A stretch of 64,000 bases of DNA from Candidatus Didemnitutus sp. Lineage in GTDB: Bacteria; Verrucomicrobiota; Verrucomicrobiia; Opitutales; Opitutaceae. The notes under the pieces are model-generated. The model was not told the origin of the DNA, did no database searches, and saw nothing but the letters and a program-made list of their open reading frames with translations. The translations under genes and the position numbers were made by a program. The stretch covers positions 1 to 64,000 of the forward strand of contig JAGOQJ010000007.1 of assembly GCA_017991595.1 (NCBI GenBank), given 5' to 3'. Positions 2,968 through 20,014 of the stretch are shown piece by piece (the stretch's first letter is position 1; the number at the start of each line of letters is the position of its first letter).

Positions 2968-3837
2968 TTAGATGTTCTTCCGGCTGCGGCGCATCAAGGT
3001 GAGGCCCATCACCAAGCAACCGCCGATGAGCGCGTAGGTGGACGGCTCAGGAATGGCGGTTGCGGGAGCGATCGTGAAATTGTCGATCGCGGTGACACCG
3101 CCGAACTCACCTTGCGCGAGGAACCCGATGTAGAGATCGTTCGGCGTTCCTCCGGTGAAGTAGCTCGCGGCAGTGACCGAGCTCTTCGTGGTGCCCGACG
3201 CGGACGAAACGACGTTTCCACTCGTGAAGTCGATCAGTTGGGTCGAGATCTGGTAAACACCTGCGTCGGCATCTGGAATAAACGTGGCCGAGAACGTATA
3301 CCACGATCCGGCGTTAAGCGTAACGTTGGCGTCGGAGACGGCGTTTTCGGCGGTGCGCACTTCCAAGGTGCCAACGGTGGAGCCGGTCAGGCTGATCAAG
3401 CGCGTGCTGGGCGTCGTGGTGGCGATGTTGAGCGCTGTGCTCGAAGAGGCCGTCGACGGATCGAGGGGCGTGAAGCCGATGGCTGTCCGCGAATTGCCTC
3501 CAGCGGAGAAGGCGGAGGCGAGAAAGTCGTAGCTGACGGTAAATCCGTTACCGGGCGTGATCGACGTCAGGGAGTAATAGGAATAGGCGAGAGAGGCAGA
3601 GACCGAGACGTCCAATCGGCCAGAAGTGCCATCCGGGCCGTTCGCGCTGGACCAAGAAGTGCCCGCGAGCGTGCTGGCCAGCGAACCGCCGTTACGCATG
3701 ACGAAGCTCGAAGACGTGAATTGATTCGCGTCGGCGAAGTCGAGGGACACGTAAGGTTGGGCGTTCGCCGCGAGTGCAGTCGCCGTGAAAAAGAGACCGG
3801 CGAGGGCCGGACGAAGGAATGGGATGTTTTTTTTCAT
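2968..3837 (-). CDS. PEP-CTERM sorting-domain protein
   Basis: A 289-residue exported protein. It has an N-terminal signal peptide (MKKNIPFLRPALAGLFF onward, cleavage near ANA), a middle region rich in Ser/Thr/Gly beta-strands that looks like a LamG/concanavalin-type fold, and a classic C-terminal sorting tag: AIPEPSTYALIGG, a hydrophobic helix and a basic end (RRSRKN). Such proteins are thought to be processed by exosortase and delivered to the surface or exopolysaccharide. Its place directly ahead of the TonB receptor suggests a surface role in glycan capture, but the binding target is unknown. A putative operator lies 210 bp upstream. Confidence 0.85.
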   Translation of the reverse strand: MKKNIPFLRPALAGLFFTATALAANAQPYVSLDFADANQFTSSSFVMRNGGSLASTLAGTSWSSANGPDGTSGRLDVSVSASLAYSYYSLTSITPGNGFTVSYDFLASAFSAGGNSRTAIGFTPLDPSTASSSTALNIATTTPSTRLISLTGSTVGTLEVRTAENAVSDANVTLNAGSWYTFSATFIPDADAGVYQISTQLIDFTSGNVVSSASGTTKSSVTAASYFTGGTPNDLYIGFLAQGEFGGVTAIDNFTIAPATAIPEPSTYALIGGCLVMGLTLMRRSRKNI

Positions 3838-4325
3838 GTTTGCAGCAATGTGAAGGGAAAGGCGCCGCGAGGGGAATTGCCTCGCGGAAGAAGAGCCAGA
3901 GCTAAGCGCGGTTTTGACAATTTGAGGCGTTCGTCGGGGTGCTTAGCCTGCAGTGCAGGCGCAGGCGTCGATTAAGTTGAATCAAGGGAATTGACTTTCG
4001 CGTCGGCTGTCAGAGCAACGGAAAGCGGCTATTCGCGGTGAACTGGATTCCACCATAGGAACAGGTGCATTGGGCCGAGTGTGGGGGCGCGGGGCGCACC
4101 GATCGTGAGTGCGAAGATGGGCGGATAAGACGGTGTCGCAGAGTTCTCGCATTCGAATGCTCACAGGCTTCGCGTTTGAGTCTCCGCGGTCTTGACCGAA
4201 GTGCGGTGGAGCGGAGTGCAAGCCTGACGCAACGCGGTTACGTCAGGGGCGTAGTCGTGCGCGACGTTTCGCGTGAGGCGCGCTTGGTCAAACGGAGCGA
4301 GAAAAGCGGAGTTTACGCGAGGGCG
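3838..4325. other. Intergenic region with a putative operator
   Basis: About 490 bp between the PEP-CTERM gene and the end of the sialidase-like gene, both on the minus strand. I see no believable gene. It should contain the promoter of the PEP-CTERM/TonB receptor pair, and it holds the 16-bp palindrome at 4047-4062 that recurs in other intergenic regions of this cluster. Confidence 0.5.
4047..4062. promoter_or_regulatory. Putative operator, RTTCC-N6-GGAAY palindrome (site 1)
   Basis: The 16-mer ATTCCACCATAGGAAC has perfect TTCC/GGAA arms. It is one of five related sites in non-coding DNA between 4 and 16 kb, and lies 210 bp upstream of the PEP-CTERM gene, which is followed by the TonB receptor gene. 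Confidence 0.4.
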
Positions 4326-6101
4326 TTACCGAATCTCGATCGTCTCGAGATTGAGGCTGATGTTCTGCCCCGTCGGCACCTGACGCGGCCACGTAGGCGC
4401 GGCGTAAAGGCCACCGAAGGCGATTTTCCGCAGAACGGATTCAGCAATCGTCAGAGGGGATGAGCCGTTGACCGAGAGCTGCACGGTGTCGCGGCCGATG
4501 CTGAGTTGAAAGCGATCCCATTGGCCGGGAGTGAATGCACCGATCGTGGTCCACGTGTTTTGGGATGTCGTCTTGGATTGATAGACATTCGCCTGCGTCT
4601 TCGTGTCGTAGATCACTCGGATGAGGAGACCGCCGCTGGTTTTTCCGCCGAGCGTGAGGATGGGGAATTCGTGTCCGTTGTAGATGACCTTCGATTCGAA
4701 GCTGAGATGGACGGTTTCTTGCGCGGTGAGTTCACGCGTGAGGACAAGTCCAAGCGTGCTTTCAGGGAGCTCGAAGCGTGCGATACCATCTTGCACCGCC
4801 AGCCCTTCGCGCCCTTGGCGCGGGAGGAGGAATGGGCGGGAAAAATCAGGGAGCGGGTGAACCTTCGCGGTGCTGATGGAGGCGTAACCGTGTGCTCCGC
4901 TCCCGTAGGTGTAGGCGAGGTAGAGGGTGTCGTCGTCGACGAATCCATTCGGGTAGCACGCGACTCCGGAGGCGGGTTGCACGAGCGGACCGGGCAGAAG
5001 CAAATTCGGGTCTTCGGTCGGCGCGCAGAAGAGGCTCAGGCGATAGCGCGTCTTCCAGCTGGGCTCGGGGACGGAGCGAAGCCAGTCGTTGGTCGAGACG
5101 AGAAGCCCGCTGTCGAGGGAGGCTTTGGTGGCGAATTGGCGGGCGCTCACGCTATCGAGATTGATCGGCATGGCCTTGCTCCACGTGCGACCGCCATCGG
5201 TGCTGCGACCCGCGAGCACAGTGCGGTAATCTGCTTTGGGATCGGGCATGCGGCTGGTGTTGCGCGCGACGAAACCGATGGAGCCATCGAGAGCTTCGAA
5301 GAGAGAGAATTCCCAGTGGTAGATCGTATCGTCATTCCCGAAGCGCGCGGGATCGTCGCCTGCATCGGTCCACTTCGCTCCGGCGATCGGTTCGCTCCAT
5401 TGCCAAGTCTTGCCGTCGTCCGCGCTCATGAGCACGGCTTGATACTCGTTGCGAATCCACAGGCCCTTGCGCTTTTCGCTCACGACTGGAGGTAAACTGC
5501 AGGGAATCATGATGACACCCTTGCTGGTGACGATGCCGTGGCCCACGGGGAAGCCGACGACTTGTCCCTTCAGTGATTCCGGCGCGCTGGGGACTTCCAA
5601 GTGCGTCCAGTTATCGCCATCGGTCGAATACGAGACGAAGGTGCGCCCGGCGTTGAACATGCTCCACGCGCAGAAGAGGACTTCGTCGCGGAGATTCACG
5701 AAGGCCGGTTGCCACTCGAGCAACGCTTCGGCGGGCGGGACGATGTTGTTGGTCGGCGACTGCGTCGCGCTGAACGCGGTGAAAGGCGCGAATGGCGTGG
5801 ACCACGTCACGAAGTCCGGGCTCGTGCTAAAATAAATGGCTTGGCCTGGTTTTCCTTCGCCCTTGTCGGGATTGCCCATCCATGACGCGAGGAAGCGTCC
5901 TTTGAAGCGGACGATGTCGCCGCAGTGGTTGTAGCGCGGCAGATCACCGGCGACATGGGCCACGTGCACTGTGCCCAGTGTCACCTTGGGTTGATAAACC
6001 GGCGGACTGGCGATCGCCGCGTGGCTTGCGAGCAGGGTGCAAGTCGAGAGCAGCGTGCCGAGGGCGCGACGCAGGGTGGGAACAGCGCAGGAGGGGGCCA
6101 T
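4326..6101 (-). CDS. Exported BNR/sialidase-like propeller protein with C-terminal LamG-like domain
   Basis: A 591-residue secreted protein. The signal peptide (LLSTCTLLASHAAIA) is followed by a six-bladed sialidase-type propeller with several Asp-box motifs (STDGDNW, SADDGKTW, STDGGRTW) over roughly residues 45-420. The last 150 residues form a beta-rich region resembling a LamG/concanavalin module. Known relatives are glycosidases or sugar-binding proteins of the sialidase superfamily, and true sialidase activity cannot be assumed. It is the last gene of a minus-strand run (hydrolase, hydrolase, YVTN propeller, this gene) with an 87-bp gap from the gene before it, so it probably takes part in the same glycan breakdown. 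Confidence 0.75.
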   Translation of the reverse strand: MAPSCAVPTLRRALGTLLSTCTLLASHAAIASPPVYQPKVTLGTVHVAHVAGDLPRYNHCGDIVRFKGRFLASWMGNPDKGEGKPGQAIYFSTSPDFVTWSTPFAPFTAFSATQSPTNNIVPPAEALLEWQPAFVNLRDEVLFCAWSMFNAGRTFVSYSTDGDNWTHLEVPSAPESLKGQVVGFPVGHGIVTSKGVIMIPCSLPPVVSEKRKGLWIRNEYQAVLMSADDGKTWQWSEPIAGAKWTDAGDDPARFGNDDTIYHWEFSLFEALDGSIGFVARNTSRMPDPKADYRTVLAGRSTDGGRTWSKAMPINLDSVSARQFATKASLDSGLLVSTNDWLRSVPEPSWKTRYRLSLFCAPTEDPNLLLPGPLVQPASGVACYPNGFVDDDTLYLAYTYGSGAHGYASISTAKVHPLPDFSRPFLLPRQGREGLAVQDGIARFELPESTLGLVLTRELTAQETVHLSFESKVIYNGHEFPILTLGGKTSGGLLIRVIYDTKTQANVYQSKTTSQNTWTTIGAFTPGQWDRFQLSIGRDTVQLSVNGSSPLTIAESVLRKIAFGGLYAAPTWPRQVPTGQNISLNLETIEIR

Positions 6102-6188
6102 ACCGCAATCAACACTCGCGAAGAAGCGCGGGACAACCTCGAAGGAGGTGTCGTGCGCGACGAAATTCCAATAGCGGAACGCTCGCGT

Positions 6189-7331
6189 TCAGCGCTGCGC
6201 TCCGGCGCGGCAGGCTCCGACAGGTTCGCCGTCGAGAGGGATCACGTGACCGGTGTTTTCGAAGCGACCGTTGCGCAGAGTGAAAATCTCAAGCTGACGA
6301 GGCCCCGTGTTGGAAACGATCAAGTGCTGGCTATCGCCGGAAAACACCGCGAACTGCGGCGCACCTTGCACCGGAATGCGATCATGCAGTCGGGACGATT
6401 TCCCGTTAAGGCGAAAGAGATGGATGCGGGCGGACTTTCCGTAAGCGGGGGCAGTGGGCTCGGGGAGATTTGCGCCTTCGAAACAACTCGCGGCGAGCCA
6501 TGCGCTATCAGGCGAAATGTCGATGCCTTCGGGCACACGACCGACGGCGAGCGATTCGACCAGCGTGGCTTTTCCGTCGAGCAGCGCATAACGTTGGACG
6601 CGGTGTTTCGCGATGTCGGCGACGAACAGAAAGTTTTCGTCTGGCGTGAAACGAGCGGCATATGGCGAGCCTTCGAACTCGATGCGTTGGACGACGCTGG
6701 GGCGGCTTGTTTCGTCGATCGCGAGAAGCAACACGGCGTGACCTTGATTGAGCGTGGCGGCCGCGAAACGGCCGCTGGGACTAATCTCGACGTGCGCGAG
6801 CGAATCCGTCGCCGTCGCAACTTGGGTGCGAGCGATTTCGCGGAGTGCTTCTTTCTCGATGCTGACGGATGAGACGGTGCCTTCCGCGCGGTTGGCGATG
6901 AGAGCGAGACGCCCGTCGGGACTGACGGAGAGCCCGGTGGCTTGGACACCAACCGTGATGGAGGCGACGATGCGTTTTTGCGACAAGTCGACGAGGAAGA
7001 CGTCGGAGCGCGGCGCGTGTTTTGGTGTGCCGTTTTCCACTTCAACCGCCATAGCGCAACTGGTGAGCACACGATTCGTGCCCGGAATCGCCGCGATAAA
7101 TGTGGGCGGGCCGATGACCGTCACGGGCACGTCAGAAATCGTGACGGCCTTGGCGGGAATGCTCGCCAGATCGAGCACGGTGAGCGAACCGCGCCCGCCC
7201 GATGAAGCAAAGTGCATGGTGTTGTCCGGATACGTGACGCTCTGGTCATTCGCCGAGACGATGAGGCCGGCGGCGTGGCCGAGCGTGGCACTCCACAATG
7301 GGAAGGATAACAACAGCGCTTTAACTTTCAT
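6189..7331 (-). CDS. Exported YVTN/lactonase-type beta-propeller protein
   Basis: 380 residues: a signal peptide (LLLSFPLWSATLGHAAG) followed by repeated propeller blades with motifs typical of YncE/6-phosphogluconolactonase-like families (GLSVSPDGRLALIANR, ARFTPDENFLFVADI, GIDISPDSAWLAASC). Relatives include lactonases and proteins of unknown function. No catalytic residues can be assigned with confidence. Only 35 bp separate it from the upstream hydrolase gene, so the two are very likely in one operon. A periplasmic sugar-lactone or binding role is an inference from that context. Confidence 0.7.
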   Translation of the reverse strand: MKVKALLLSFPLWSATLGHAAGLIVSANDQSVTYPDNTMHFASSGGRGSLTVLDLASIPAKAVTISDVPVTVIGPPTFIAAIPGTNRVLTSCAMAVEVENGTPKHAPRSDVFLVDLSQKRIVASITVGVQATGLSVSPDGRLALIANRAEGTVSSVSIEKEALREIARTQVATATDSLAHVEISPSGRFAAATLNQGHAVLLLAIDETSRPSVVQRIEFEGSPYAARFTPDENFLFVADIAKHRVQRYALLDGKATLVESLAVGRVPEGIDISPDSAWLAASCFEGANLPEPTAPAYGKSARIHLFRLNGKSSRLHDRIPVQGAPQFAVFSGDSQHLIVSNTGPRQLEIFTLRNGRFENTGHVIPLDGEPVGACRAGAQR

Positions 7332-7366
7332 GACGGGCGGGCGGTTCGGGTGTTTTGAGTTCCGGT

Positions 7367-10087
7367 TCAGTAGAAGCGCAGGACGAAGCGGACTGCGTCG
7401 GCGACGACGAACCCGTCTGCACTATCGTTGCGCACTACGACGCTTCCACCGGTGCCGGCGTTGAAGGCGTAGGTGTCGAGCAGCACCCACGTGCCGCCGT
7501 CGACTTTTTGATTCACGTTGAAGGTTGCGCTGCCGGTGGCGTGGTTGACGTCGATGGGTGCATCGGTCGCGCGGTTAACTGAAGCGGTCCAGCGCACATA
7601 GACATCGTAAACGCCCGTGACCGGGAGGTTCGGCGTGAAGGTGACGCTCTTGCCACCGGTGGTGCCGGTGTTGCCGTCGTGCAGATAATTCGCGCCGTGG
7701 AAACCGGCGGTGGCGGCGGTGGTGGTCCAGCTGCCGACGATGGAGACCGAGCCGGTATCGGTGTTATCGACGATCACCGGCGCGAGTGGCGGAGCCGAGA
7801 TCGCAGGTGATTCAGTGGAAATGCCGCCGTCGTTCACTGACGAAACCGTGTAGTAATAGACGACGTTGGCGGTGACGCTGGTGTCGGTGTAGGACGTCGC
7901 CGTGACGCCGGAGGCAATCGTGGTGTAGGGGCCGTTGAGCGAGGTCGCGCGCTTGACGAGGTAGGACGTGGCGCCTTCCGCGGCGGACCATGAAAGCGAG
8001 ATTCCGGTGAATCCTGGCGCGAGGCCGAGGCCCGTGGGCGCGAGGGGCGGCGCGAGGACGAATTTCACCGCGTCGGCGACGACATAGAAATTCGCGCCGT
8101 CATTGCGCAGCAGAACACTGCTGGATGTGCCCGCGTTGAAGTGGAAAGCGCCAAGGAGCATCCATGCGCCGTTGTTGGCCTTTTGATTCACTTCGGTCGT
8201 GGTCGTGCCGGAGGCGTGGATGATGTCGACCGGTGCGTTCGATGCGCGGTTGGAGCCTGCCGCCCAGCATTGGTAAACGAGGTAGCGTCCGGCGACGGGC
8301 AGGTTGGGCGTGAAGCGCACGCTCTTGCCGCCAGTGGAGCCGGTGTTGCCGTCGAGGAGGTAGTTGGTGCCGTAGTAGCCGGTGCTCGCGGTCGATGTTG
8401 ACCAGCTGCCAGTGACGGTGGCGGCGGTGTTATCGACGATCACGGGATCTTGAGTGCGCGCGCTGGCGGGAACGGAGTCGGTGGAGGTGCCACCGGCGTT
8501 CACCGCGGATACGGAATAGTAGTAGGTGGTGGCGCTCGAGACGGCGGTGTCCGTGTAGCTGCTGGACGTGAGGCCGGTGGCCAGCGTTGTGAGCGAAGTG
8601 GGCGAGGTGCCGCGTTTGACTGTGAACGACGTGGCTTCGACGGTCGGCGCCCACTTGAGCGCAATCTGACTGGAAGAGGCGGTGGCGCGCAGGCCGGTGG
8701 GTTGGGACGCGGAGCCGCCGTTGCTCGTGGGGCTGAGGCGAAGCGTGGTGACGCGATCGGTGACGTTGAGCGTAATCGTGTTGCTGGAGATCGTCGCGTT
8801 CGACGCGGTCATGTCGCCTGCGTCGTCGAGCGTGTAAGCGACCGCGCTGACGATGGAGGCAGGGAGATTAATGGTGACGCTTTGGGGCGAGACCGTGATC
8901 GGCACGCCGGTGTTGCGATTGTAGGAAGAGAGACCGAGCCAGAGGCAGAGATAGAAATCGCCGTTGCGCTTTTGGAAGAGGACGGACCACACATCGGCGG
9001 TGGAGCCGGAGAGACTGTAATCGAGTGAACTCGGAGTGAAGTCGGCGCCCGGATCCTTGAGTAATGAGAGGAGATTCTGGATCGCGGTGTAGGCGGGTTT
9101 CGGCGTGAGGTCGTTGTAGAGGAGGCCGAAGTTGTCCTGCTGGTCGGCGGGATCGAGCCCTTCGTCGACGAGTTCGTAAGAGCAGATGACCGCGGCGCCT
9201 TTGAGAAAGTGAGCGAGATAGAAGCGCGGCATGTAGCGACCGTGGTTCACGATTGGCCACGTGGCGCTGAGGCTGGCGGCGGTGCCGCCGCCGCCCTCGG
9301 TGACGGCATAGCTTTTCGAGGGACTTTGGATGCTGGTGCGGTTCGTGATCGCGTAGTCGATGCCGCGAATGTTGGTCGCCTCCGGATGGGAGCCGAAGAG
9401 GTAGTGGTGAACGTTGCTATGATCAATGGACGAGGTGAGGTCGCCGACTTCTGTATAGGCGGAGTCCTCGCCCAGCGACGGGCCGATCAATGGAATGAGG
9501 CTGATCGCTTCGTCGGCATCGCCGCGGAGCGCGTCGCGCGCATCGGGCGTGGCGGCTTGCAGGTAGGAGGCGAAGTAGAAGGGCGAGGTGTCGCTGCCTG
9601 AGAGCGGCTCGGTGAGATCGCGCCAGTAGGTGCCGCCGTATTGGGTGGGGCTATCGAGCTCGTTGTTCATCTCGACGTAGCGAATGGCGCTCGGTCCGAT
9701 TTTGCGGACGAAGTCGTTGATCGCGTAGTCGGGTGACGCGGCCCAGTAACCGGGGGCGGGCTTCGTGCCGACGATGGGGTTGACGAGCAGGATCGATTTG
9801 GTGCCGGAGAGGGCGAGCTGTTGGAGCTTGGCCTCGAAGGCGGGCGACGCGCCGGAGGTGCGGCACATAGCCAGACTGGAATCGATCAGCTTTTCGCTGA
9901 GCTCGCCGAAGTTGGCGTAAACATTGAATTCTTTTCGCCAATGCGTCGCGACGCCGGTGGAGCGGACGAATTGCTCGGTCGGAATCGCCTGCACTGGCGC
10001 GGCTAGGACGGGTGAACTCAGATTAACGGCGAGGGCGGCCAAGGACGCGATGCGCCCGGCAGCCAGGCCATGCTTTAGGGTGACCAT
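7367..10087 (-). CDS. Putative clan GH-A glycoside hydrolase with two FN3 and two golvesin-like domains (copy A)
   Basis: A 906-residue exported enzyme. I start it at the ATG at 10087 because it gives a normal signal peptide (ending SSPVLAAPVQA); the frame stays open further upstream with non-protein-like sequence. Residues 35-370 look like a TIM-barrel hydrolase, with YVEMNNE (E143, candidate acid/base) and YAVTEGGGG (E264, candidate nucleophile), the usual clan GH-A spacing. A beta-sandwich of about 100 residues follows, then FN3, golvesin-C-like (VIVDNT... to ADAVKFV), a second FN3 and a second golvesin-like domain that ends the protein. The family is unresolved. It is a tandem paralogue of the next gene (10263-12899). 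Confidence 0.7.
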   Translation of the reverse strand: MVTLKHGLAAGRIASLAALAVNLSSPVLAAPVQAIPTEQFVRSTGVATHWRKEFNVYANFGELSEKLIDSSLAMCRTSGASPAFEAKLQQLALSGTKSILLVNPIVGTKPAPGYWAASPDYAINDFVRKIGPSAIRYVEMNNELDSPTQYGGTYWRDLTEPLSGSDTSPFYFASYLQAATPDARDALRGDADEAISLIPLIGPSLGEDSAYTEVGDLTSSIDHSNVHHYLFGSHPEATNIRGIDYAITNRTSIQSPSKSYAVTEGGGGTAASLSATWPIVNHGRYMPRFYLAHFLKGAAVICSYELVDEGLDPADQQDNFGLLYNDLTPKPAYTAIQNLLSLLKDPGADFTPSSLDYSLSGSTADVWSVLFQKRNGDFYLCLWLGLSSYNRNTGVPITVSPQSVTINLPASIVSAVAYTLDDAGDMTASNATISSNTITLNVTDRVTTLRLSPTSNGGSASQPTGLRATASSSQIALKWAPTVEATSFTVKRGTSPTSLTTLATGLTSSSYTDTAVSSATTYYYSVSAVNAGGTSTDSVPASARTQDPVIVDNTAATVTGSWSTSTASTGYYGTNYLLDGNTGSTGGKSVRFTPNLPVAGRYLVYQCWAAGSNRASNAPVDIIHASGTTTTEVNQKANNGAWMLLGAFHFNAGTSSSVLLRNDGANFYVVADAVKFVLAPPLAPTGLGLAPGFTGISLSWSAAEGATSYLVKRATSLNGPYTTIASGVTATSYTDTSVTANVVYYYTVSSVNDGGISTESPAISAPPLAPVIVDNTDTGSVSIVGSWTTTAATAGFHGANYLHDGNTGTTGGKSVTFTPNLPVTGVYDVYVRWTASVNRATDAPIDVNHATGSATFNVNQKVDGGTWVLLDTYAFNAGTGGSVVVRNDSADGFVVADAVRFVLRFY

Positions 10088-10203
10088 GTTATCGAGGGGT
10101 TGAGGCTTGAGCGGAAACCGCGAAGTTCGCGGTCTGGGGAACCGGAGCGTGACGGCGCGCCGGCGACGGGAACAAGCGAGGGCGGCCAAGTATGGCCGAT
10201 CCG

Positions 10204-10219
10204 ATTCAGCTAATTGAAC
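10204..10219. promoter_or_regulatory. Putative operator (site 2)
   Basis: The 16-mer ATTCAGCTAATTGAAC has TTCA/TGAA arms. It lies 117 bp upstream of hydrolase copy A and shares the CTAAT centre with site 3 ahead of copy B, matching it at 12 of 16 positions. Confidence 0.35.
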
Positions 10220-10262
10220 GGCTCGACTTGCTCGCGAAGGTGGATCCGTAGCGAGGTGGCTC

Positions 10263-12899
10263 TCAGCGCACGCGCATCAATCGCCAGAAACGTTGGCGCG
10301 AATTGTTCAAACTACGCCGATCAAAAATGGACAGCGTTTCGCTTGCGGGCTCGTGAGTGATTTCGATCTGAGCGTCGAGTGAGCGCCAGGCGTTTCCATT
10401 GATTGACTCTGCCACATCAATCCATGTGCCGGTGAGTTCTTCCGTGGACTGAAGGCGCCATAAGCTGGCGGTCGAAGATGGTGGCCATTGGAAAGAGAGC
10501 GCGAAACCATCACCGCCGTTGCTCTGATTAATGGTGAGCGTGGGAACGCGATCATCCGCGGGATCGTTGGTGGCAGCGTAAACGGGCGGTGAGTCGCTCG
10601 AGATGCCGCCGTCGTTGAGCGAGGCGACCGTGTAGTAGTAGCGCGTGCCTTGCGTGAGGCCGGTATCGGTGAACACGTTCGAGGTGATGCCGGATGCGAT
10701 GGTGTGGTAAGGACCGCTCGGCGACGTGGCGCGTTTGATGAGGTAGGAATTAGCGCCCTCGGCTGCAGTCCACGTGAGCGAGAGGTCGGTATCGCCGGAT
10801 GAAAAGGTGAGGCCGGTGGGCGCGAGCGGTGGTGCGAGGACGAATTGGGCGGCGTCGGCGATGACGTGAAAGTTGGCGCCATCGTTGCGCAGGAGGATGT
10901 TGCCCGCTTGTCCAGCGTTGAAGTGAGCCGCGCCGATGAGGAGCCAGGTGCCGTTGTTGGCCTTTTGATTGATGGACGTGGTGATCGTGCCAAAGGCGTG
11001 GTTGATATCGACCGGGACGTTCGAGGCGCGATTGGCGCCAGCGGTCCAGCGCAGATAAATGAGGTAGCGTCCGGCGATGGGGAGGTTTGGTGTGAAGCGC
11101 GCGCTTTTGCCGCCGGTGGTGCCGGTGTTGTCGTCGATCAGATAGTCGGCGCCGTAGTAGCCTTCGTTGGCGGTGGAGGAGGTCCAAGTGCCGGTAAGCG
11201 TGGCGTCGGTGTTGTCGATGATGACAGGGTCTTGTGTGCGCGCGCTCGCGAGCGCGGAGTCGGAGGAGATGCCACCAACGTGCACCGCGCAAACGGAGTA
11301 ATAGTAGGTTGTGGAGCCGGAGACGGACGTGTCGGTGTAGTTGTTGGCGGTGAGGCCGGTGGCGAGTGGAATGAGCGAAGTAGGTGAGGTGCCGCGTTTG
11401 AGCGTGAATGAAGTCGCTTCGACGGTGGGTGCCCACTTGAGCACAATCTGATTTGCGGACGCGGAGGCGCGCAGTCCAGTGGGTCGAGACGCGGCGCCGC
11501 CGTTCGTTGAGGGACTGAGGCGCAGAGTGGTGACGCGATCCGTGACGTTGAGGGCAATTTCGCGGTTGGAAATCGCAGCAGACGTGGCGGTCATTCTGCC
11601 GGAGTCATCGAGGGTGTAGGCGATGGCGCTGGCGATGGAGGCCGGGAGACTGACGTTCACGCGTTGAGCTGGGACGACGATATGCTGGCCCGCGTTGCGG
11701 TCGTAAGACGAAAGACCGAGCCAAAGGCAGAGGAAGAAGTCGCCGTTGCGCTTTTGGAAGAGAACCGACCAGACGTCGGAAGTGGAGCCGGAGAGGCTGT
11801 AGTCGAGGGAGCTCGGAATGAAATCAGGGCCCGGGTCTTTGAGGAGCGAGAGGAGATTTTGAATCGCGGTGTAGGCGGGCTTCGGGGTGAGGTCGTTGTA
11901 GAGGAGGCCGAAGTTGTGCTGCTGGTTGGCGGGATCGAGTCCCTCGTCAACGAGTTCGTAGGAACACGTGGCGGCGGACCCTTTGAGGAAGTGGGCGAAA
12001 TAGAAGCGTGGAATGTATCGCCCGTGCGTGACGATGGGCCACGTGGCACTGAGGCTGGCGGCAGTGCCGCCGCCGCCTTCGGTTACAGCGTAGCTTTTGG
12101 TGGGGCTTTGAATGCTGGTGCGGTTGGCAATGGCGTGGTCGATACTGCGGATGTTGGTCGCCTCGGGATGAGACCCAAAAAGGTAATGATGAACGTTGCT
12201 GTGATCGATTGATGGGGTGAGATCGCCGACTTCGGCGTAGGCTGTGTCTTCCCCGAGTGATGGGCCAATCAAAGGGATGCGGTTGATGGCTTCGTCGAAG
12301 TCGCCTTTGAGTGCTGCTTGCGCGGCGGGCGTCGCGGCGCGCAGATAGGAAGCGTAGAAAAAAGGCGAGTTGGCGTCGGCAGAGAGAGGCTCGCTGAGGT
12401 TGCGCCAGTAAGTGCCGCCGTATTGGGTAGGGCTATCGAGCTCGTTGTTCATTTCGACGTAGCGAATCGCTCCCGGACCTACCATGCGGATGAAGTCGTT
12501 GATCGCGTAGTTCGGTGCAGCGGCCCAAAAATCAGCAGAGGGCTTGGTTCCGACGATGGGATTGATCAGCAGGATTGTCTGGGTTCCGGAGAGCGAGAGT
12601 TGCTGAAGTTTCGCGACGAACGCAGGAGAGGCGCCTGACGCGCGGCACATCGCCAAGCTAGAATCGATCAGTTTATCGCTGAGTTCACCGAAGTAGGCGT
12701 AAACATTGATTTCCTTCCGCCAATGCGTCGCCACGCCGGTCGAGCTGACAAACGACTCCGCTGGTATCGCCTGCACCGGATCGGCGAGACCTTGCGAACT
12801 CATAAATGCCGCTAAAAGCAAACCCACGAGCAGGGAGCGAAATCTCTCGGGACGCGTTGTGGTCGCATGTGCTGCGAGAAACGGCATGACGCAGACCAA
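10263..12899 (-). CDS. Putative clan GH-A glycoside hydrolase with FN3 and golvesin-like domains (copy B)
   Basis: An 878-residue exported protein that is collinear with copy A over the catalytic part: same GVATHWRKE, YVEMNNELDSP (E153) and YAVTEGGGG (E274) motifs, long stretches identical. The signal peptide is residues 18-40 (LLVGLLLAAFMSSQGLA). After the catalytic and beta-sandwich region come FN3, one golvesin-like domain and a second FN3. The second golvesin domain is replaced by about 80 residues with a WRLQSTEELTG motif, a type of C-terminal module often seen on exported Verrucomicrobial proteins. The gene arose by tandem duplication with domain exchange at the 3' end. It is probably the first gene of the operon that continues with copy A. 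An alternative start is the Met at residue 5. Confidence 0.7.
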   Translation of the reverse strand: MVCVMPFLAAHATTTRPERFRSLLVGLLLAAFMSSQGLADPVQAIPAESFVSSTGVATHWRKEINVYAYFGELSDKLIDSSLAMCRASGASPAFVAKLQQLSLSGTQTILLINPIVGTKPSADFWAAAPNYAINDFIRMVGPGAIRYVEMNNELDSPTQYGGTYWRNLSEPLSADANSPFFYASYLRAATPAAQAALKGDFDEAINRIPLIGPSLGEDTAYAEVGDLTPSIDHSNVHHYLFGSHPEATNIRSIDHAIANRTSIQSPTKSYAVTEGGGGTAASLSATWPIVTHGRYIPRFYFAHFLKGSAATCSYELVDEGLDPANQQHNFGLLYNDLTPKPAYTAIQNLLSLLKDPGPDFIPSSLDYSLSGSTSDVWSVLFQKRNGDFFLCLWLGLSSYDRNAGQHIVVPAQRVNVSLPASIASAIAYTLDDSGRMTATSAAISNREIALNVTDRVTTLRLSPSTNGGAASRPTGLRASASANQIVLKWAPTVEATSFTLKRGTSPTSLIPLATGLTANNYTDTSVSGSTTYYYSVCAVHVGGISSDSALASARTQDPVIIDNTDATLTGTWTSSTANEGYYGADYLIDDNTGTTGGKSARFTPNLPIAGRYLIYLRWTAGANRASNVPVDINHAFGTITTSINQKANNGTWLLIGAAHFNAGQAGNILLRNDGANFHVIADAAQFVLAPPLAPTGLTFSSGDTDLSLTWTAAEGANSYLIKRATSPSGPYHTIASGITSNVFTDTGLTQGTRYYYTVASLNDGGISSDSPPVYAATNDPADDRVPTLTINQSNGGDGFALSFQWPPSSTASLWRLQSTEELTGTWIDVAESINGNAWRSLDAQIEITHEPASETLSIFDRRSLNNSRQRFWRLMRVR

Positions 12900-12951
12900 G
12901 GCGCGCGGTCAGATGGCAAACAATTCATTTCGCTACGTTAGCTTAGGCTTG

Positions 12952-12967
12952 GTTCGACTAATGGAAC
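12952..12967. promoter_or_regulatory. Putative operator (site 3)
   Basis: The 16-mer GTTCGACTAATGGAAC has GTTC/GAAC arms and lies 53 bp upstream of the start of hydrolase copy B. It is the same distance from its gene as site 5 is from the IclR start. Confidence 0.4.
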
Positions 12968-13091
12968 TTCTGATACGGATTTTCCTGCTCGCGCTTTAAG
13001 GCAGGCAAGGCCCTGCCGTTGTGAGGATTCGCGCGAGTAGCTGCTTGCGCGGAAAGCACGCTCGGTAATGTCGAAATCTGGAGTTGGTGAC

Positions 13092-13107
13092 GTTCCGGTA
13101 ATGGAAC
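13092..13107. promoter_or_regulatory. Putative operator (site 4)
   Basis: The 16-mer GTTCCGGTAATGGAAC has perfect 5-bp arms GTTCC/GGAAC and matches site 3 at 13 of 16 positions. It lies between hydrolase copy B and the MFS transporter, 354 bp from the latter. Confidence 0.4.
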
Positions 13108-13460
13108 CTGTCTGGCCCGAGAAGGGGCTTTGCCGTTGCCTGTCTTGGGCGAGTGGCAGCCAATGGATTTTGTATCCTGCCTGTCCAGGGATAAGGGCTA
13201 CATCCTATTCTACGCATAGTCGTCCGTTCACCCGCTTCAACTCACCCTGTCGATTTACCCATGCTGTTTTCTCCGTTTCATCCCAGTTCCTGTGATGCCG
13301 GCCCGAGGCAACATGGCATTTTGGCGATCAGACACAGCGTGCGGCGAACCGATTTAGGCTACGAAAAGGATATTCGTTCTCGTGTCTCACGTGCGCCGGG
13401 GTGCTGGCGCTGCGTGTGACCACCAGCCCCGTTTTCCTCGACTACCAGGTCAACTGACCG

Positions 13461-14714
13461 ATGACTCACTCCGCCGCTCCGTCCCGTCTCTCGCCAAATT
13501 ACCGTTGGGTCATCCTCGCGCTGCTGTTCTGCGCGGGTTACCTCAACCAATTCGACCGGCAGACGGTTTCGGTGTTGAAGGCGACGCTGAAGCTGGACTT
13601 CGGCATCGACGACGCGGGGTATGCGGTCTTGGTCAATGCTTTCACGGTCTGCTACGCGATCGCCTACATCGCGAGCGGCTGGGTGGTGGATCGGGTCGGC
13701 CCAAAGCGGGCGCTGACGTGGTTCATAGCGGTCTGGTCGCTGGCGACGGTGGGTTGCGGTATCGTGCACTCGCTGTGGCTGATGGTTTTTCTCCGCGGTC
13801 TGCTCGGGCTGGCGGAGCCGGGGCTTTTCCCGGTCACGATCCGCACGGCCACGGCGTGGGTGGAGGACAAGGGGCGCGGCTTCTTCATGGCTTTGGGCAC
13901 CATCGGCACGAGCATCGGCGGCATCACGGCGGTGCCGATCATCGCGTGGCTGACGATTCACATGCACTGGCGCTGGGCCTTCGTGCTGCCGGGGGTGATG
14001 GGATTGCTCGTGGCGGCGGCGTGGTGGAAATTCTACCGTGAACCGGAGCGTCCGGCCGCCGAGGCCGCGGCGGAGCCCGCCGCGGTGCGCCCGGCCCTGC
14101 CGTGGAAAAGCCTCTGGCGCGAGAAGGCGCTCTGGGGCATCGTGCTCGTGCGTCTGGTGAGCGATCCGGTCTGGTATTTTTGCCTCTTCTGGATGCCGGG
14201 TTACCTGCAGGAATCGAAACAGGTCTCGATCGGCCTGCTCGGTGTCATCGGCTGGATTCCGTTCCTGTGTGCGAACGTCGGCGGTCTCGCCTTCACGGCG
14301 TTGTCCGATTGGCGCGCGAAGCAGCGGGGGCTGCTCGGTCGCAAGCATCTGGTGATGCTTACCGCGGTGGCGGGGCCGCTTTGCTGGCTCGTGCCGCAGT
14401 CGTCGATCGCGGTGACGATCCTGTTGTTCTGCCTCATCGCGGTGTTGTGCAACGCCTGGCTGGGATCGTTGGCGCCGATGATCGCGCAACTCTTCCCGAT
14501 GGGCAACGTGGCGAGCGTGTATGGCATCTCGGGTGCGTTCGGCGCATCGGGGGCGATCCTGTTCAACTATCTCATCGGGCAGGCGGCGGGTCGCTTCGGC
14601 ATGGAGCCGCTGTTCCTCGCGATGGGGTTGCTGCATCCGCTCGCGGCGCTGATCATGTTCCTCCTCGTGCGGGAGAAACGGCCGGCGGCCGCGCCGGTGG
14701 CGCTCAACGCTTGA
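13461..14714 (+). CDS. MFS transporter, hexuronate/ACS-like
   Basis: 417 residues with about 12 hydrophobic segments. The N-terminal half carries an early FDRQTVSVLK segment and a DRVGPKRAL loop, the conserved MFS loop 2-3 pattern. The overall pattern (GYLNQFDRQ, WRWAFVLPG) resembles the anion:cation symporter family that includes ExuT hexuronate and related sugar-acid carriers. It probably brings the breakdown product of the surrounding hydrolases into the cytoplasm. Its 3' end overlaps the convergent IclR regulator by 11 bp. The exact substrate is unknown; a uronic acid is only a family-based guess. Confidence 0.8.
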   Translation: MTHSAAPSRLSPNYRWVILALLFCAGYLNQFDRQTVSVLKATLKLDFGIDDAGYAVLVNAFTVCYAIAYIASGWVVDRVGPKRALTWFIAVWSLATVGCGIVHSLWLMVFLRGLLGLAEPGLFPVTIRTATAWVEDKGRGFFMALGTIGTSIGGITAVPIIAWLTIHMHWRWAFVLPGVMGLLVAAAWWKFYREPERPAAEAAAEPAAVRPALPWKSLWREKALWGIVLVRLVSDPVWYFCLFWMPGYLQESKQVSIGLLGVIGWIPFLCANVGGLAFTALSDWRAKQRGLLGRKHLVMLTAVAGPLCWLVPQSSIAVTILLFCLIAVLCNAWLGSLAPMIAQLFPMGNVASVYGISGAFGASGAILFNYLIGQAAGRFGMEPLFLAMGLLHPLAALIMFLLVREKRPAAAPVALNA

Positions 14715-15471
14715 CGGCGAGCAGGCGGCTCAGGTTCTCCGCCAAGGCGAGCACCGAGTCCTGCATCTCGCGTTGATCGCGCAGGATGTAGGCGTCGTGC
14801 CGGATGAGCAGCGCGACAGCCAGGCGAGGCGGATTCACCAGCGGCTCGCGGACGACGGCGGCCACGGAGACGTGGTTGACGCTCGTCTCGCGCATGTTCC
14901 ACGCGTAGCCGTTTTTCCGCGCTTCGCGCAGTTGCGCGTAGAAGCGCGCGGGATCGAGATTGGTGTGAGGCGTGACGGCCGCATCGCCGGGTTGCGGCGC
15001 ATAGGCGGGCCAGGCGCGCTCGTCCATCTGCGCGACCAGCACCTTGCCGGCCGAAGAGCAATGCACGTAGCCGCTGCGGCCGAGGCGCACGGTGTTGCCT
15101 TCCTCGCCGGCGGCGCAGACGACCCACGCCTGCCGCCCGCCGAGCATGTCGAGGTAGATGCTGGCATTCAGCCGCACCGCGGCCTTGCGCAGCGCCTCGT
15201 CGAGGTTCCGATTCTGCCCGAAGTGCGCGGCGAGTTCGTGCACGAAGGCGAAGATCTCGGGGTTGACGCTGTAGCGGTGGTTTTTCTCGTTTTGCTGGAC
15301 GAAGCCGATCTGGCACAGCGTCTGGAGCAGGCGGTGAAGCGAGGATTTGGGCTGGCCGAGCTCGGCGGCGATCTGGGTGACGCCCAAGGCATAACCCTTG
15401 TGCAGCAGCAGGCGCACGACCGCGATGCCTTGGGTCAAGGGCGTATTCGGAACGGGGCCGCGATCTGGCAT
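14704..15471 (-). CDS. IclR-family transcriptional regulator
   Basis: 255 residues from the ATG at 15471. Upstream codons stay open but are not protein-like, and starting there would run through the divergent promoter. An N-terminal winged helix (LTQGIAVVRLLL... then QPKSSLHRLLQTL recognition helix) is followed by the IclR effector-binding domain (GYVHCSSAGKVLVA, NGYAWNMRE, VNHVSVAAVV). IclR proteins bind palindromic operators and respond to small acids or sugars. The gene is divergent from the FAD oxidoreductase, with a palindrome between them, and convergent with the MFS gene. It is the natural candidate regulator of this cluster. Confidence 0.9.
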   Translation of the reverse strand: MPDRGPVPNTPLTQGIAVVRLLLHKGYALGVTQIAAELGQPKSSLHRLLQTLCQIGFVQQNEKNHRYSVNPEIFAFVHELAAHFGQNRNLDEALRKAAVRLNASIYLDMLGGRQAWVVCAAGEEGNTVRLGRSGYVHCSSAGKVLVAQMDERAWPAYAPQPGDAAVTPHTNLDPARFYAQLREARKNGYAWNMRETSVNHVSVAAVVREPLVNPPRLAVALLIRHDAYILRDQREMQDSVLALAENLSRLLAVKR

Positions 15472-15523
15472 GCCACCAGCCAAAGGGCGGGCCGCGCACA
15501 GTGGCAAGGATGCTTCGCGGGTC

Positions 15524-15539
15524 GTTCCATTGCTGGAAT
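15524..15539. promoter_or_regulatory. Putative IclR operator (site 5) in the divergent promoter
   Basis: The 16-mer GTTCCATTGCTGGAAT has perfect TTCCA/TGGAA arms around TTGC. It sits 53 bp before the IclR start and 64 bp before the proposed oxidoreductase start, where an autoregulating IclR protein would be expected to bind. Confidence 0.5.
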
Positions 15540-15602
15540 CGTCCCGCTGCAAATCGCGGACGCAGGCTGGTTCGGTCGAGGCCGACGGGTGACGCTTCAA
15601 TC

Positions 15603-16940
15603 GTGAATTTTCCGCACTACGAATTGCAGACGGCATGTCTGGTGGTCGGCGGCGGGCCGGCCGGCTATGGCGCGGCGGTCGCCGCCAGTTCCCGGGGGGC
15701 GCAGGTGATCCTCGCGGAGCGGCACGGATTCCTCGGCGGCATGGGCTCGGCGGCGGGGCTCGGCTGCTACCTCAACCACCGCGGGGCCGATCGCGACCTC
15801 AGCGACGGGGTGTATCAGGAACTCGTGCAAACGCTGCGGCAGCAAGGCGCGACGTATCACGACGACTATTCGCAGGCCGACTTTTTCGAACCCGAGTGGT
15901 GCAAGCGTCTCATGGAACAAAGGCTCCTGCGCGCAGGTGTGCGGTTGCTTTACCACTGCCTGTTCGAGCAGGTGGAGCGCGATGGCGAAGGCTGGCGCGT
16001 GACCTTCCTGGCCAAGGGCGGACGCGTGGTGGTGCGTTGCGCCTATCTCGTCGATGCGACGGGCGATGCCGACGTGTGCACCGCGGCGGGAGTGACGGTG
16101 ACGCATGGCCGGCGCAGCGATGGCAAGGCGCAACCGATGACGATGGTCGTGCAACTCGGCGGTTTCGACCCGGCGGCGTGGGCGCGGGCGGGCGGGCGCA
16201 TGGTGGGCGACGGCAGCTTTGCGATGGAAGGCGATTGCTTCGCGACGGCGATCGCGGCGGCGCGCGCCGCGGGGCACTGGACGATCCCGCGCACCGAGAT
16301 CGCGATGTTCTGGTCGATGCCGTCCGATCCGACGCGTATCACCATCAACGGCACGCGCATCAACGGTCTCAGCGCCTGCAATCCGCTCGACGTCACCGCG
16401 GCCGAGGTGGAAGGCCGCCGCCAGGCTCAGGAAATCCTGCATTTTTTCCGCCACTATGTGCCGGGCGGAGCGGACGTTTATCTCCTGCAGACCGGACCGC
16501 AGGTCGGCGTGCGCGAGAGCAGGCGCATCGCCGGCCGGGCAGTGTTGTCGGAGGAGGATGTGCGCGCCGGCCGGAGGCCGCCGAATGCGGTCGTGACCTG
16601 CTCTTATCCGATCGACGTGCATCATCCGGATGGGGCTGGAACCCAGTTCGAGAAAGTCACACAGGATCACGCTTACGGAATCCCGTGGGAATGTCTGCTG
16701 CCGATCGGAGCGGAGAATCTCGTCGCAGCTGGGCGCTGCATCAGCGCCACGCATGAGGCGGCAGGCAGCTTCCGCGTCATGCCGACTTGCATGGGACTCG
16801 GCGAGGCGGCCGGCACGGCGGTGGATCTCGCTCAGGCCGAAGGCGTGCCGTTGCATGCCATCACGGGCGAACGCATCCGGCGTGCGATGGATGCGCGCAA
16901 GGCCGCGCTCGTGACAACGGATGCCGGCAGCAGGTCGTAA
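15603..16940 (+). CDS. FAD-dependent oxidoreductase (FAD_oxidored type)
   Basis: 445 residues from the GTG at 15603. An earlier GTG at 15501 is in frame, but it would begin with Arg/Cys-rich, non-protein-like sequence over the operator. The N-terminus holds a Rossmann dinucleotide fold (VVGGGPAGYGAAVAASSRG, then an acidic residue at ILAER). LVDATGDADV and a C-terminal AAGRCISATHEAAGS and MPTCMGLGEAAG complete the FAD-binding pattern. This family is common in polysaccharide-use clusters and is thought to oxidise or reduce sugars, but the reaction is not established. The GH38 gene follows after 17 bp, so the two are co-transcribed. Probably cytoplasmic, as no signal peptide is seen. Confidence 0.8.
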   Translation: MNFPHYELQTACLVVGGGPAGYGAAVAASSRGAQVILAERHGFLGGMGSAAGLGCYLNHRGADRDLSDGVYQELVQTLRQQGATYHDDYSQADFFEPEWCKRLMEQRLLRAGVRLLYHCLFEQVERDGEGWRVTFLAKGGRVVVRCAYLVDATGDADVCTAAGVTVTHGRRSDGKAQPMTMVVQLGGFDPAAWARAGGRMVGDGSFAMEGDCFATAIAAARAAGHWTIPRTEIAMFWSMPSDPTRITINGTRINGLSACNPLDVTAAEVEGRRQAQEILHFFRHYVPGGADVYLLQTGPQVGVRESRRIAGRAVLSEEDVRAGRRPPNAVVTCSYPIDVHHPDGAGTQFEKVTQDHAYGIPWECLLPIGAENLVAAGRCISATHEAAGSFRVMPTCMGLGEAAGTAVDLAQAEGVPLHAITGERIRRAMDARKAALVTTDAGSRS

Positions 16941-19900: not shown

Positions 19901-20014
19901 CCGACGGCGGGCTGGCAAACAGGGACGCTGGAGATGAATTACACGGCGTATGCTGTGGCCACGGTGTGGTTCCGCGCCACAGGTGTGGAGCGTTTGGCCT
20001 CGGTGGGCTCGTAG
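16958..20014 (+). CDS. GH38 alpha-mannosidase
   Basis: 1018 residues from the GTG at 16958, 17 bp after the oxidoreductase stop; the earlier in-frame Met lies inside that gene in another frame. GH38 hallmarks are present in order: GHAHIDLVWLWPE (H260 and D262, expected zinc ligands), WLPDVFGYSG (D372, expected nucleophile), FTTKLSWS, and FAQFHDYIPGSS (H569, expected zinc ligand). The N-terminal 240 residues match the beta-sandwich that precedes the catalytic domain, and the C-terminal half is the usual large beta-domain. It should cleave terminal alpha-mannosides from imported oligosaccharides. No signal peptide is seen, so it is likely cytoplasmic. Confidence 0.9.
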   Translation: MLPPTFLTQLIPARIAEALRRIEARVWTFESASIAVQQTESFRVHRRLDELSSADFTPVPAAPFHWGPKYAQRWFRLALPAWPDARGRYLVWDDQAEATAYVEGVPYSGLDLAHRFCPLPAGLRELEVEAVCIRSAIWLDGTASHLTEQGSRYLPPRVAVRDDLAWSVYHDLKVLLDVLEAEYRDFHPGATKPFTDPVRHSPPVWRVSPLFRRLCERLDRAVGVFDREGLEALAAALGAIYREFSADPAALRAVLTGHAHIDLVWLWPERVGEFKAVHSWSTQVRLLRTYPEFRFGYSQPASYEAVARRAPGLHARVRGLIAEGRWEATGASYVESDTQLPCGEALWRSLRLGQESFAALRGRPATVFWLPDVFGYSGCLPQLLQACGVRGFFTTKLSWSTVNRHPHTSFVWRGNDGSEVVAHVVLLHDYNESVDVRRLREDALHHQQAAVHDEFLVPTGYGDGGGGPTEEMCERVRRLRDLAGAPRAEWGGIEAFYERLGRVADRLPTASGELMLELHRGVYTTHGRLKAAFRGLERALQVQEAAHIAAGAGPVAGEAWRRLVFAQFHDYIPGSSIWEVYAEGIPELEQLARAAWTAAETCLQSEAAAAVGWFNPLAVARHWRVGAECYRLAPLSGGPIASLERVALPPPQATAQHLSSARVQAEFDAHGALRGLRIDGHEVALRGAGHRLVAYPDHPAAFEAWDVDRNTLVNGVPAICVGGPEISLTAGEASLSFAYRAAVSSTVRVTYRVTADEPVLRVDYEIDWRDPEWLLKAIFSTAYQGRQARFGAPFGSTLRGQWPGQTREEALWEVPFSRWLVVMDDAQAEGLAVVTCDRYGATVREGEAGVTLLRSARVTEADHHPAIRETPARPDHSDLGGQRVSLAIARFAGNLSQAEHPAMLADTLFTPCVAVRGMMPCAAGLAAMEHADTLIPAWSEPVAVGLWCLRVHEVGGRHGRAKLTLLPGWQAVASSLSATTPPTAGWQTGTLEMNYTAYAVATVWFRATGVERLASVGS

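What the first reader, a model, noticed from the sequence alone, without database searches (positions are those of the whole stretch)
4047..15539. Shared 16-bp palindrome linking receptor, hydrolase, transporter and oxidoreductase genes
Five intergenic sites read ATTCCACCATAGGAAC (4047), ATTCAGCTAATTGAAC (10204), GTTCGACTAATGGAAC (12952), GTTCCGGTAATGGAAC (13092) and GTTCCATTGCTGGAAT (15524). Three fit RTTCC-N6-GGAAY exactly; with equal base use one such match is expected per about 260 kb. All five lie in front of cluster genes, and one lies in the divergent promoter of an IclR regulator, where autoregulation is expected. IclR proteins commonly bind palindromes of about this size. This suggests one undescribed regulon from the TonB receptor to the mannosidase.
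Basis: partly seen in the sequence, partly recalled or inferred. Interest (0 to 1): 0.72.

Follow-up and report, generated by a model that had tools for sequence, protein, structure and literature searches.

The report
IclR-controlled glycan-use regulon, conserved operator
A short mirror-image DNA signal in front of a bacterial sugar-degradation gene cluster is very probably the docking site of the cluster's own switch protein, because the same signal sits at nearly the same distance from the same gene in about a dozen related bacteria.

Summary
A matrix trained only on 19 sites of other genomes scores five window sites 19.4-21.9 (4047, 6165, 12952, 13092, 15524); the next best is 11.3. Site 10204 (11.2) is background.

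The regulator's clade carries the palindrome in 12 of 12 loci examined (window included), in two families of one order. Its centre sits 71-79 bp upstream of the FAD-oxidoreductase gene in 17 of 18 loci with a close oxidoreductase. Paralogous IclR loci have 16-bp palindromes of the same geometry with one symmetric base changed: clade A GTTCC...GGAAC (22 of 23 paired intergenic sites), clade B GTTCA...TGAAC (16 of 16).

Best explanation: the operator of the divergent IclR regulator, controlling oxidoreductase-mannosidase, TonB-receptor, sialidase-like, transporter and hydrolase units, plus itself. It is a new member of the known IclR group-1 operator type (PMC8222616), in a phylum absent from that survey's taxon table. 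Binding, ligand and sign of regulation are untested.

The parts
4047..4062 (.). operator-like palindrome ATTCCACCATAGGAAC, centre 217.5 bp before the ATG of the PEP-CTERM-like gene that precedes the TonB receptor
   Evidence: exact pattern; score 19.4 with a matrix from other genomes; distance
   Evidence: exact pattern; score 21.9; distance
12952..12967 (.). operator-like palindrome GTTCGACTAATGGAAC (one mismatch), centre 72.5 bp before the in-frame ATG at 12887 of a Golvesin_C/fn3 gene
   Evidence: score 21.7; distance and open frame
13092..13107 (.). operator-like palindrome GTTCCGGTAATGGAAC in the divergent gap between the Golvesin_C gene (212.5 bp) and the MFS transporter (361.5 bp)
   Evidence: exact pattern; score 21.1; distances
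15524..15539 (.). operator-like palindrome GTTCCATTGCTGGAAT in the divergent IclR / FAD-oxidoreductase gap
   Evidence: exact pattern; score 21.3; centre 71.5 bp before GTG 15603 and 60.5 bp before ATG 15471, as in the orthologues
10204..10219 (.).
   Evidence: score 11.2, equal to background
14704..15471 (-). IclR-family regulator (HTH_IclR + IclR_C)
   Evidence: Pfam 50.1 and 52 bits; gene call
15603..16940 (+). FAD-dependent oxidoreductase PF12831, start at GTG 15603 by homology (the gene caller chose 15642)
   Evidence: Pfam 6.6e-108; homologues
16958..20014 (+). GH38 alpha-mannosidase-like protein, 17 bp behind the oxidoreductase
   Evidence: Pfam 2e-65; gene call
13461..14714 (+). MFS transporter; best NCBIfam model is the D-galactonate transporter subfamily, well below its cut-off
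   Evidence: Pfam 6e-49; TIGR00893 190.9 against 395 bits
10263..12887 (-). Golvesin_C + fn3 protein with an uncharacterised N-terminal part; the N-terminus looks like a signal peptide (by eye)
   Evidence: Pfam 2e-29; weak PDB hit 5jvk_A; frame
7367..10087 (-). second Golvesin_C + fn3 protein
   Evidence: Pfam 2.5e-72; gene call
6189..7331 (-). beta-propeller (lactonase-like) protein, 35 bp behind the previous gene
   Evidence: Pfam 2.9e-9
4326..6101 (-). BNR_2 sialidase-like protein
   Evidence: Pfam 4.8e-13
2968..3837 (-). protein with a C-terminal PEP-CTERM-like motif
   Evidence: Pfam E 0.00063, 20.2 bits, just under the cut-off of 20.7
686..2818 (-). TonB-dependent receptor
   Evidence: Plug domain 6.8e-18; siderophore-type NCBIfam model, 213.4 bits against a cut-off of 223.5

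Best explanation
The palindrome GTTCCA-N4-TGGAAC is the operator of the IclR-family regulator encoded at 14704-15471. A dimer would read the two GTTCC half-sites. It controls, from the divergent gap, its own gene and the FAD-oxidoreductase/GH38 unit, and from further sites the PEP-CTERM/TonB-receptor unit, the BNR_2 gene, and the Golvesin_C and MFS units: a local regulon for taking up and breaking down a glycan, probably one with mannose. Shown: site positions, rarity, conservation with the regulator, near-fixed spacing to the oxidoreductase, and change of one operator base with the regulator's clade. Inferred: protein binding, dimer mode, operons, glycan substrate. The sign is open; I lean towards repression relieved by a sugar or sugar-acid intermediate, by analogy with other IclR proteins (recalled), but the fixed distance would also suit an activator.
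For: Rarity and clustering: 12 places per genome, 4 of them in 11.5 kb; 4 of 4 intergenic against 1 of 8 elsewhere. Cross-genome prediction: a matrix from 19 foreign sites finds five window sites far above the rest of the contig. Conservation: exact C-type palindromes before the regulator and/or the oxidoreductase in 12 of 12 clade-A loci, window included, four of them in another family of the order. Spacing: centre 71-79 bp from the oxidoreductase reference start in 17 of 18 loci whose oxidoreductase is 53% or more identical, also where the regulator is not adjacent (G017a, G134a) (G620 by hand). Flanks diverge while the palindrome stays. Co-evolution: paired intergenic RTTC-N8-GAAY sites are C-type in 22 of 23 for clade A and A-type in 16 of 16 for clade B; clade A support 98/99. 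Co-occurrence: the 10 of 252 family genomes with the oxidoreductase at E<=1e-90 are all among the 17 of 252 with an IclR relative at E<=1e-15.
Against: No binding or expression data. Four of the 17 clade A and B regulators (G134a, G017a, G243b, G232b) have no exact paired palindrome within 450 bp upstream of themselves, so autoregulation is not universal. G114 (oxidoreductase 55% identical) has no exact site before the oxidoreductase; the regulator gene lies directly upstream of it on the same strand, with a one-mismatch palindrome in front. Six more distant oxidoreductase homologues (32-37%) in these loci have no site. Genomes without the regulator hold similar totals of the bare pattern (10-21 in G001, G005, G015, G025, G032; refined pattern 1-6 in G055, G475, G615, G617 against 2-10 in 12 genomes with it): what differs is the placing, not the number. 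No residue of the HTH separates clades A and B under the rule used. Sites 4047 and 13092 lie over 200 bp from the nearest start. Related genomes are not independent (G000/G003 98%). Gene calls were home-made; three sites called coding were moved to intergenic after reading the frames.
Confidence: 0.9

Rival explanations
1. The palindrome is read by a different regulator, encoded elsewhere, and sits beside IclR only because the whole cluster is inherited together.
For: In G017a and G134a the site lies before the oxidoreductase while the IclR gene is preceded by an AraC-type gene (Pfam); the site tracks the oxidoreductase start (71-79 bp) more tightly than the IclR start (17-167 bp).
Against: One symmetric base of the site changes together with the IclR clade; the form GTTC-N8-GAAC is close to that published for IclR group 1 (PMC8222616); the site also lies within 450 bp upstream of the IclR gene in 13 of the 17 clade A and B rows.
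Confidence: 0.06
2. The repeated palindromes are chance matches in a favourable composition.
For: The genome-wide density of 12 in 2.88 Mb is near expectation and most matches elsewhere are in coding DNA; G017 has 34 matches; genomes without the regulator have similar totals; one of 60 or more simulated contigs reached a score of 20.5.
Against: 0 of 100 shuffles reach 4 in the window; sites at near-fixed spacing in 17 of 18 loci; five sites at 19.4 or more in one cluster against 0.33 sites of 15 or more per simulated 142 kb.
Confidence: 0.01
3. The element acts as RNA or as a promoter part of the oxidoreductase gene, not as a protein operator.
For: Distance of 71-79 bp to one gene and a second conserved patch (about GCTNGT) 26 nt downstream.
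Against: The same palindrome occurs before unrelated genes (TonB, BNR, Golvesin_C) at various distances, and the six central bases vary between sites.
Confidence: 0.03

Closest known systems
IclR-family group 1 operators, even-length subgroup iv NGTYCRAW4TYGRACN (Suvorova and Gelfand 2021, PMC8222616)
   Same: Even 16-bp core and GTTC outer half-site; that paper finds sugar/sugar-acid genes frequent and dehydrogenase COGs over-represented in this subgroup. Paralogue clade B (GTTCA..TGAAC) fits the R at half-site position 5.
   Different: Clade A, the window's own, has C instead of R at position 5 (GTTCC). Verrucomicrobiota is not in that paper's Table 2 and the word is not in its main text.
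GTT-11-AAC subgroup GTTYCRYW3RYGRAAC of the same paper
   Same: Half-site GTTYCR matches GTTCCR.
   Different: One base shorter: N6 between the C and G of the arms, against N7.
GenR, C. glutamicum, ATTCC-N7(5)-GGAAT (Table 1 of PMC8222616)
   Same: TTCC/GGAA arms, IclR family.
   Different: Spacer 7 or 5 instead of 6; 3-hydroxybenzoate/gentisate pathway in Corynebacterium.
PcaR/PcaU/PobR regulators
   Same: Best NCBIfam model for the protein (TIGR02431, 72.7 bits); best PDB sequence hit is 8eju, a Pca-regulon regulator.
   Different: Far below the family cut-off of 284.75 bits; different operator and an aromatic pathway (Table 1 of PMC8222616).

Membership tests
IclR-family transcriptional regulator | N-terminal HTH_IclR and C-terminal IclR_C domains in a protein of about 250 aa | tested here: met
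   PF09339 50.1 bits and PF01614 52 bits, both above cut-off
IclR-family transcriptional regulator | sequence-specific binding to an operator | not testable with these tools
   only co-evolution and conservation were computed
IclR group 1 operator | palindrome with outer GTTC/GAAC-type half-sites, 15-18 bp | tested here: met
   sites against the consensus of PMC8222616
IclR group 1, subgroup iv (NGTYCRAW4TYGRACN) | R at half-site position 5 | tested here: not met
   with only RTTC-N8-GAAY and a paired position 5 required, clade A has C in 22 of 23 intergenic sites and A in 1 (10204); clade B meets it, A in 16 of 16. The 19 matrix sites all have C because they were chosen by the pattern, so they do not count here.
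IclR group 1, subgroup ii (GTT-11-AAC) | 17-bp length | tested here: not met
   a search for RTTC...GAAY of 15, 16 and 17 bp over the window and 22 loci listed mostly 16-bp intergenic sites and only scattered 15- and 17-bp ones (non-palindromic coding hits were not printed)
PcaR/PcaU/PobR | score above the curated cut-off | tested here: not met
   72.7 against 284.75 bits
polysaccharide-utilisation-type locus | TonB receptor plus glycoside hydrolases under a local regulator | tested here: inconclusive
   Plug, GH38, GH44 and BNR domains and shared sites are there; common control is predicted, not shown
polysaccharide-utilisation-type locus | SusD-like lipoprotein | tested here: inconclusive
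   no SusD family among the cluster proteins scanned, but not every small ORF was scanned

The most novel reading that the evidence does not exclude
Opitutales carry a family of paralogous IclR/FAD-oxidoreductase pairs that act as interchangeable control modules for different glycan loci. Each paralogue clade reads the same 16-bp frame with a private base pair at half-site position 5 (C, A and perhaps G), so that several modules in one genome, as in G017, G134, G243 and G232, stay insulated from each other.
Probability: 0.6. Interest if true: 0.6.

Novelty: new member of a known kind. Interest (0 to 1): 0.45.

Why it matters
I know of little on how glycan loci are controlled in Verrucomicrobiota (recalled). 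In the open-access library, IclR+Opitut+regulon and Verrucomicrobi+IclR+polysaccharide utilization gave no paper, and a wider Opitut search listed two papers that I did not open. A predicted operator with near-fixed spacing gives a direct handle for naming regulon members in uncultured Opitutales. The one-base difference between paralogue operators is a ready test case for how IclR proteins read DNA.

Tried and rejected
10204 as a site: rejected, score 11.2 against 11.3 for the best non-site. Two-mismatch matches: uninformative. Promoter and terminator scans in three stretches that together hold all five strong sites found nothing. A single HTH residue explaining C versus A: none under the rule of disjoint residues with at most four kinds in clade A. 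Clade C as G-type (GTTCG..CGAAC): 2 intergenic and 2 coding paired G sites, plus 1 coding C site, over six loci; suggestive only. Control stretches of the window's contig gave 1 paired intergenic site, C-type, the GC palindrome at C2:105720. Remote regulon members: 18 stretches asked for, one of them already held; the 17 new ones and L068 held 19 exact palindromes, 11 coding and 8 intergenic, 2 of these 8 on the G620 contig that carries the rest of its split IclR gene (the stretches were picked by eye, not at random; not pursued). General palindrome search upstream of IclR genes gave mostly GC-rich noise. Five proteins of L061 and an antisense frame of L064 gave no Pfam hit; the L064 frame was a gene-caller error.

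Capped lists: the refined-pattern scan of 252 genomes found a match in 71 and listed only part; in G000, G003, G117, G134, G017 and G232, 7 of 8 matches lie near the IclR gene, the 2 of G245 were not listed and G243 had none. In one search (RTTCCRN4YGGAAY), matches on the IclR cluster were G414 2 of 2, G575 3 of 6, G620 2 of 5, G117 2 of 5, G000 3 of 8, G232 2 of 6, G003 2 of 7, G134 1 of 5, G616 1 of 7, G017 1 of 10, G243 at least 2 of 5; G245 (9) was not listed. The oxidoreductase search scored at most 6 candidates per genome, so absence elsewhere is not proved.
Full report
Observation. The exact pattern RTTCC-N6-GGAAY occurs four times in the window (4047, 6165, 13092, 15524), against 0.22 expected; 0 of 100 shuffles reach four. 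With a simple codon-usage gene caller of my own the four cluster sites are all intergenic, while of the other eight, seven are coding. The sister genome G003 has a contig of the same length (48,132) and match place as a record titled Candidatus Didemnitutus sp. MAG, so the window is very probably from Opitutaceae.

Independent prediction. I built a weight matrix from 19 sites of other genomes, none from the window or its 98%-identical sister; they had been found with the exact pattern, so their arms are uniform by choice. On the 142-kb contig it ranks 6165, 12952, 15524, 13092 and 4047 first, with scores 21.9 to 19.4; the sixth is 11.3. Site 12952, with one mismatch, is therefore as good as the exact ones. 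Site 10204 scores 11.2 and is not supported. In 60 simulated 142-kb sequences the mean best score was 14.0, the highest 20.5, and sites of 15 or more came at 0.33 per sequence: one hit could be chance, five in one cluster hardly.

Conservation. IclR relatives at E<=1e-15 occur in 17 of 252 family genomes, and in 2 of the 13 genomes of the genus. The clade of the window's protein (clade A, support 98/99 in a tree of 28 rows) has members 48-98% identical to it in two families of the order. Including G620, whose IclR gene is split over two contigs and is not in the tree, 12 of 12 clade-A loci carry an exact C-type palindrome before the regulator and/or before the oxidoreductase. The four loci of the second family were fetched after the motif had been defined and served as a test. 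My gene caller put three of these sites inside genes; reading the frames showed them to lie before the homologous starts of an oxidoreductase (L092, L064) and of the regulator (L090).

Spacing. Measured against the same reference codon, the centre of the palindrome lies 71-79 bp before the FAD oxidoreductase in 17 of the 18 loci where that protein is 53% or more identical: 12 of clade A and 5 of clade B (G620 by hand from its coordinates). The exception is G114, where the regulator gene lies directly upstream of the oxidoreductase on the same strand and a one-mismatch palindrome lies before the regulator. Six more distant homologues (32-37%) in the loci have none. In the window the distances to the BNR_2 ATG (71.5 bp) and to the ATG at 12887 of the Golvesin_C gene (72.5 bp) are the same as that to the oxidoreductase (71.5 bp); the site at 4047 is 217.5 bp and the one at 13092 is 212.5 and 361.5 bp from the nearest starts. 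The flanks of the 17 sites have diverged while the palindrome has not. Before the regulator gene itself a paired palindrome lies within 450 bp in 13 of 17 clade A and B rows; G134a, G017a, G243b and G232b lack one.

A base that changes with the regulator. Paralogous IclR proteins (clade B, 44-55% identical), five of six with the oxidoreductase in the same locus, have palindromes of the same length with A instead of C at position 5. Counting every RTTC-N8-GAAY with a complementary position 5 in intergenic DNA: clade A stretches 22 C and 1 A (the A is 10204), with 6 unpaired and 4 coding C; clade B stretches 16 A and 0 C, with 2 unpaired and 1 coding A. Clade B is not resolved as one clade and clade A is a single group, so this may reflect very few evolutionary changes. 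No HTH residue separates the two sets under the rule used.

Counts elsewhere. The bare pattern is no commoner in genomes with the regulator: 10-21 matches in five orthologue-free relatives, 12 in G000, 12 in G003, 34 in G017. With the tighter pattern RTTCCRN4YGGAAY four orthologue-free genomes have 1-6 and the twelve others 2-10. The signal is in placing: for example both matches of G414 (3.8 Mb) lie in the IclR cluster.

Gene content. The window cluster encodes a TonB receptor, a PEP-CTERM-like protein, a BNR_2 protein, a beta-propeller, two Golvesin_C proteins, an MFS transporter, IclR, the FAD oxidoreductase (PF12831), GH38, GH44 and a second BNR_2 protein. In G117 and G243 the same core (TonB receptor, MFS 67-70%, Golvesin_C 46-48%, GH38 67-69%, oxidoreductase, IclR) is joined by GH65, a HAD hydrolase and a GH42-like protein; in G134 and G017 a GH4 enzyme lies beside the oxidoreductase. 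G003 shares IclR, oxidoreductase, GH38, GH44 and BNR_2 but has other genes on the IclR side, five of which gave no Pfam hit. The operator and the IclR/oxidoreductase pair are thus kept while other enzymes change. A glycan with alpha-mannose is the likeliest substrate; this is inference from GH38 alone.

Mechanism. The most likely reading is a local IclR regulon with autoregulation. The direction of control is open. The near-strict distance to the oxidoreductase start fits either a repressor over the promoter or an activator just upstream; the sigma-70 scan was empty.

Known context. Suvorova and Gelfand 2021 (PMC8222616; I read the abstract, passages and the three sections on site structure, regulog content and protein-DNA correlations) define group 1 IclR motifs with GTTC-type half-sites, including an even-length subgroup frequent in sugar regulons. 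The present motif resembles that subgroup with C instead of R at position 5. Verrucomicrobiota is absent from the taxon table and main text of that paper. Seven library searches were made; the two that name this phylum or group together with IclR gave no paper, within an open-access library only. The finding is a new member of a known kind, with a clean operator prediction.

Noticed in passing
26 nt downstream of the palindrome before the FAD oxidoreductase, window 15566-15571: A second conserved patch, about GCTNGT: four of its columns agree in at least 12 of 17 upstream regions; 0 of 2000 single-base shuffles of 12 of these sequences reach the observed six-column agreement, though the sequences are related. 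Could be a promoter element; unexplained.
   Followed up: partly
L094, L065, L095, L096, L066: Paralogous IclR loci with GTTCA-N6-TGAAC palindromes, six intergenic ones in L094 alone, two of these 34 bp apart.
   Followed up: yes
L067, L103, L104, L102: More distant IclR paralogues (helix with HD instead of HR) near GTTCG...CGAAC palindromes, two intergenic and two coding: a possible third operator type.
   Followed up: partly
G000:C2:105720 (L071:1720): The only other intergenic exact match in G000, GTTCCCGGGCCGGAAC, inside a longer inverted repeat (acagcacaGTTCCCGGGCCGGAACtgtgccgg); looks like another kind of element.
   Followed up: no
L064:17221-18236: A strong site lies directly before a gene for a protein with a PEP-CTERM-like end, as at 4047 in the window; the two proteins align only over that end.
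   Followed up: partly
family-wide: All 10 of 252 genomes with the oxidoreductase at E<=1e-90 also carry the IclR relative, but both are patchy: 2 of 13 genomes of the genus have them. This suggests gain and loss of the pair together.
   Followed up: partly
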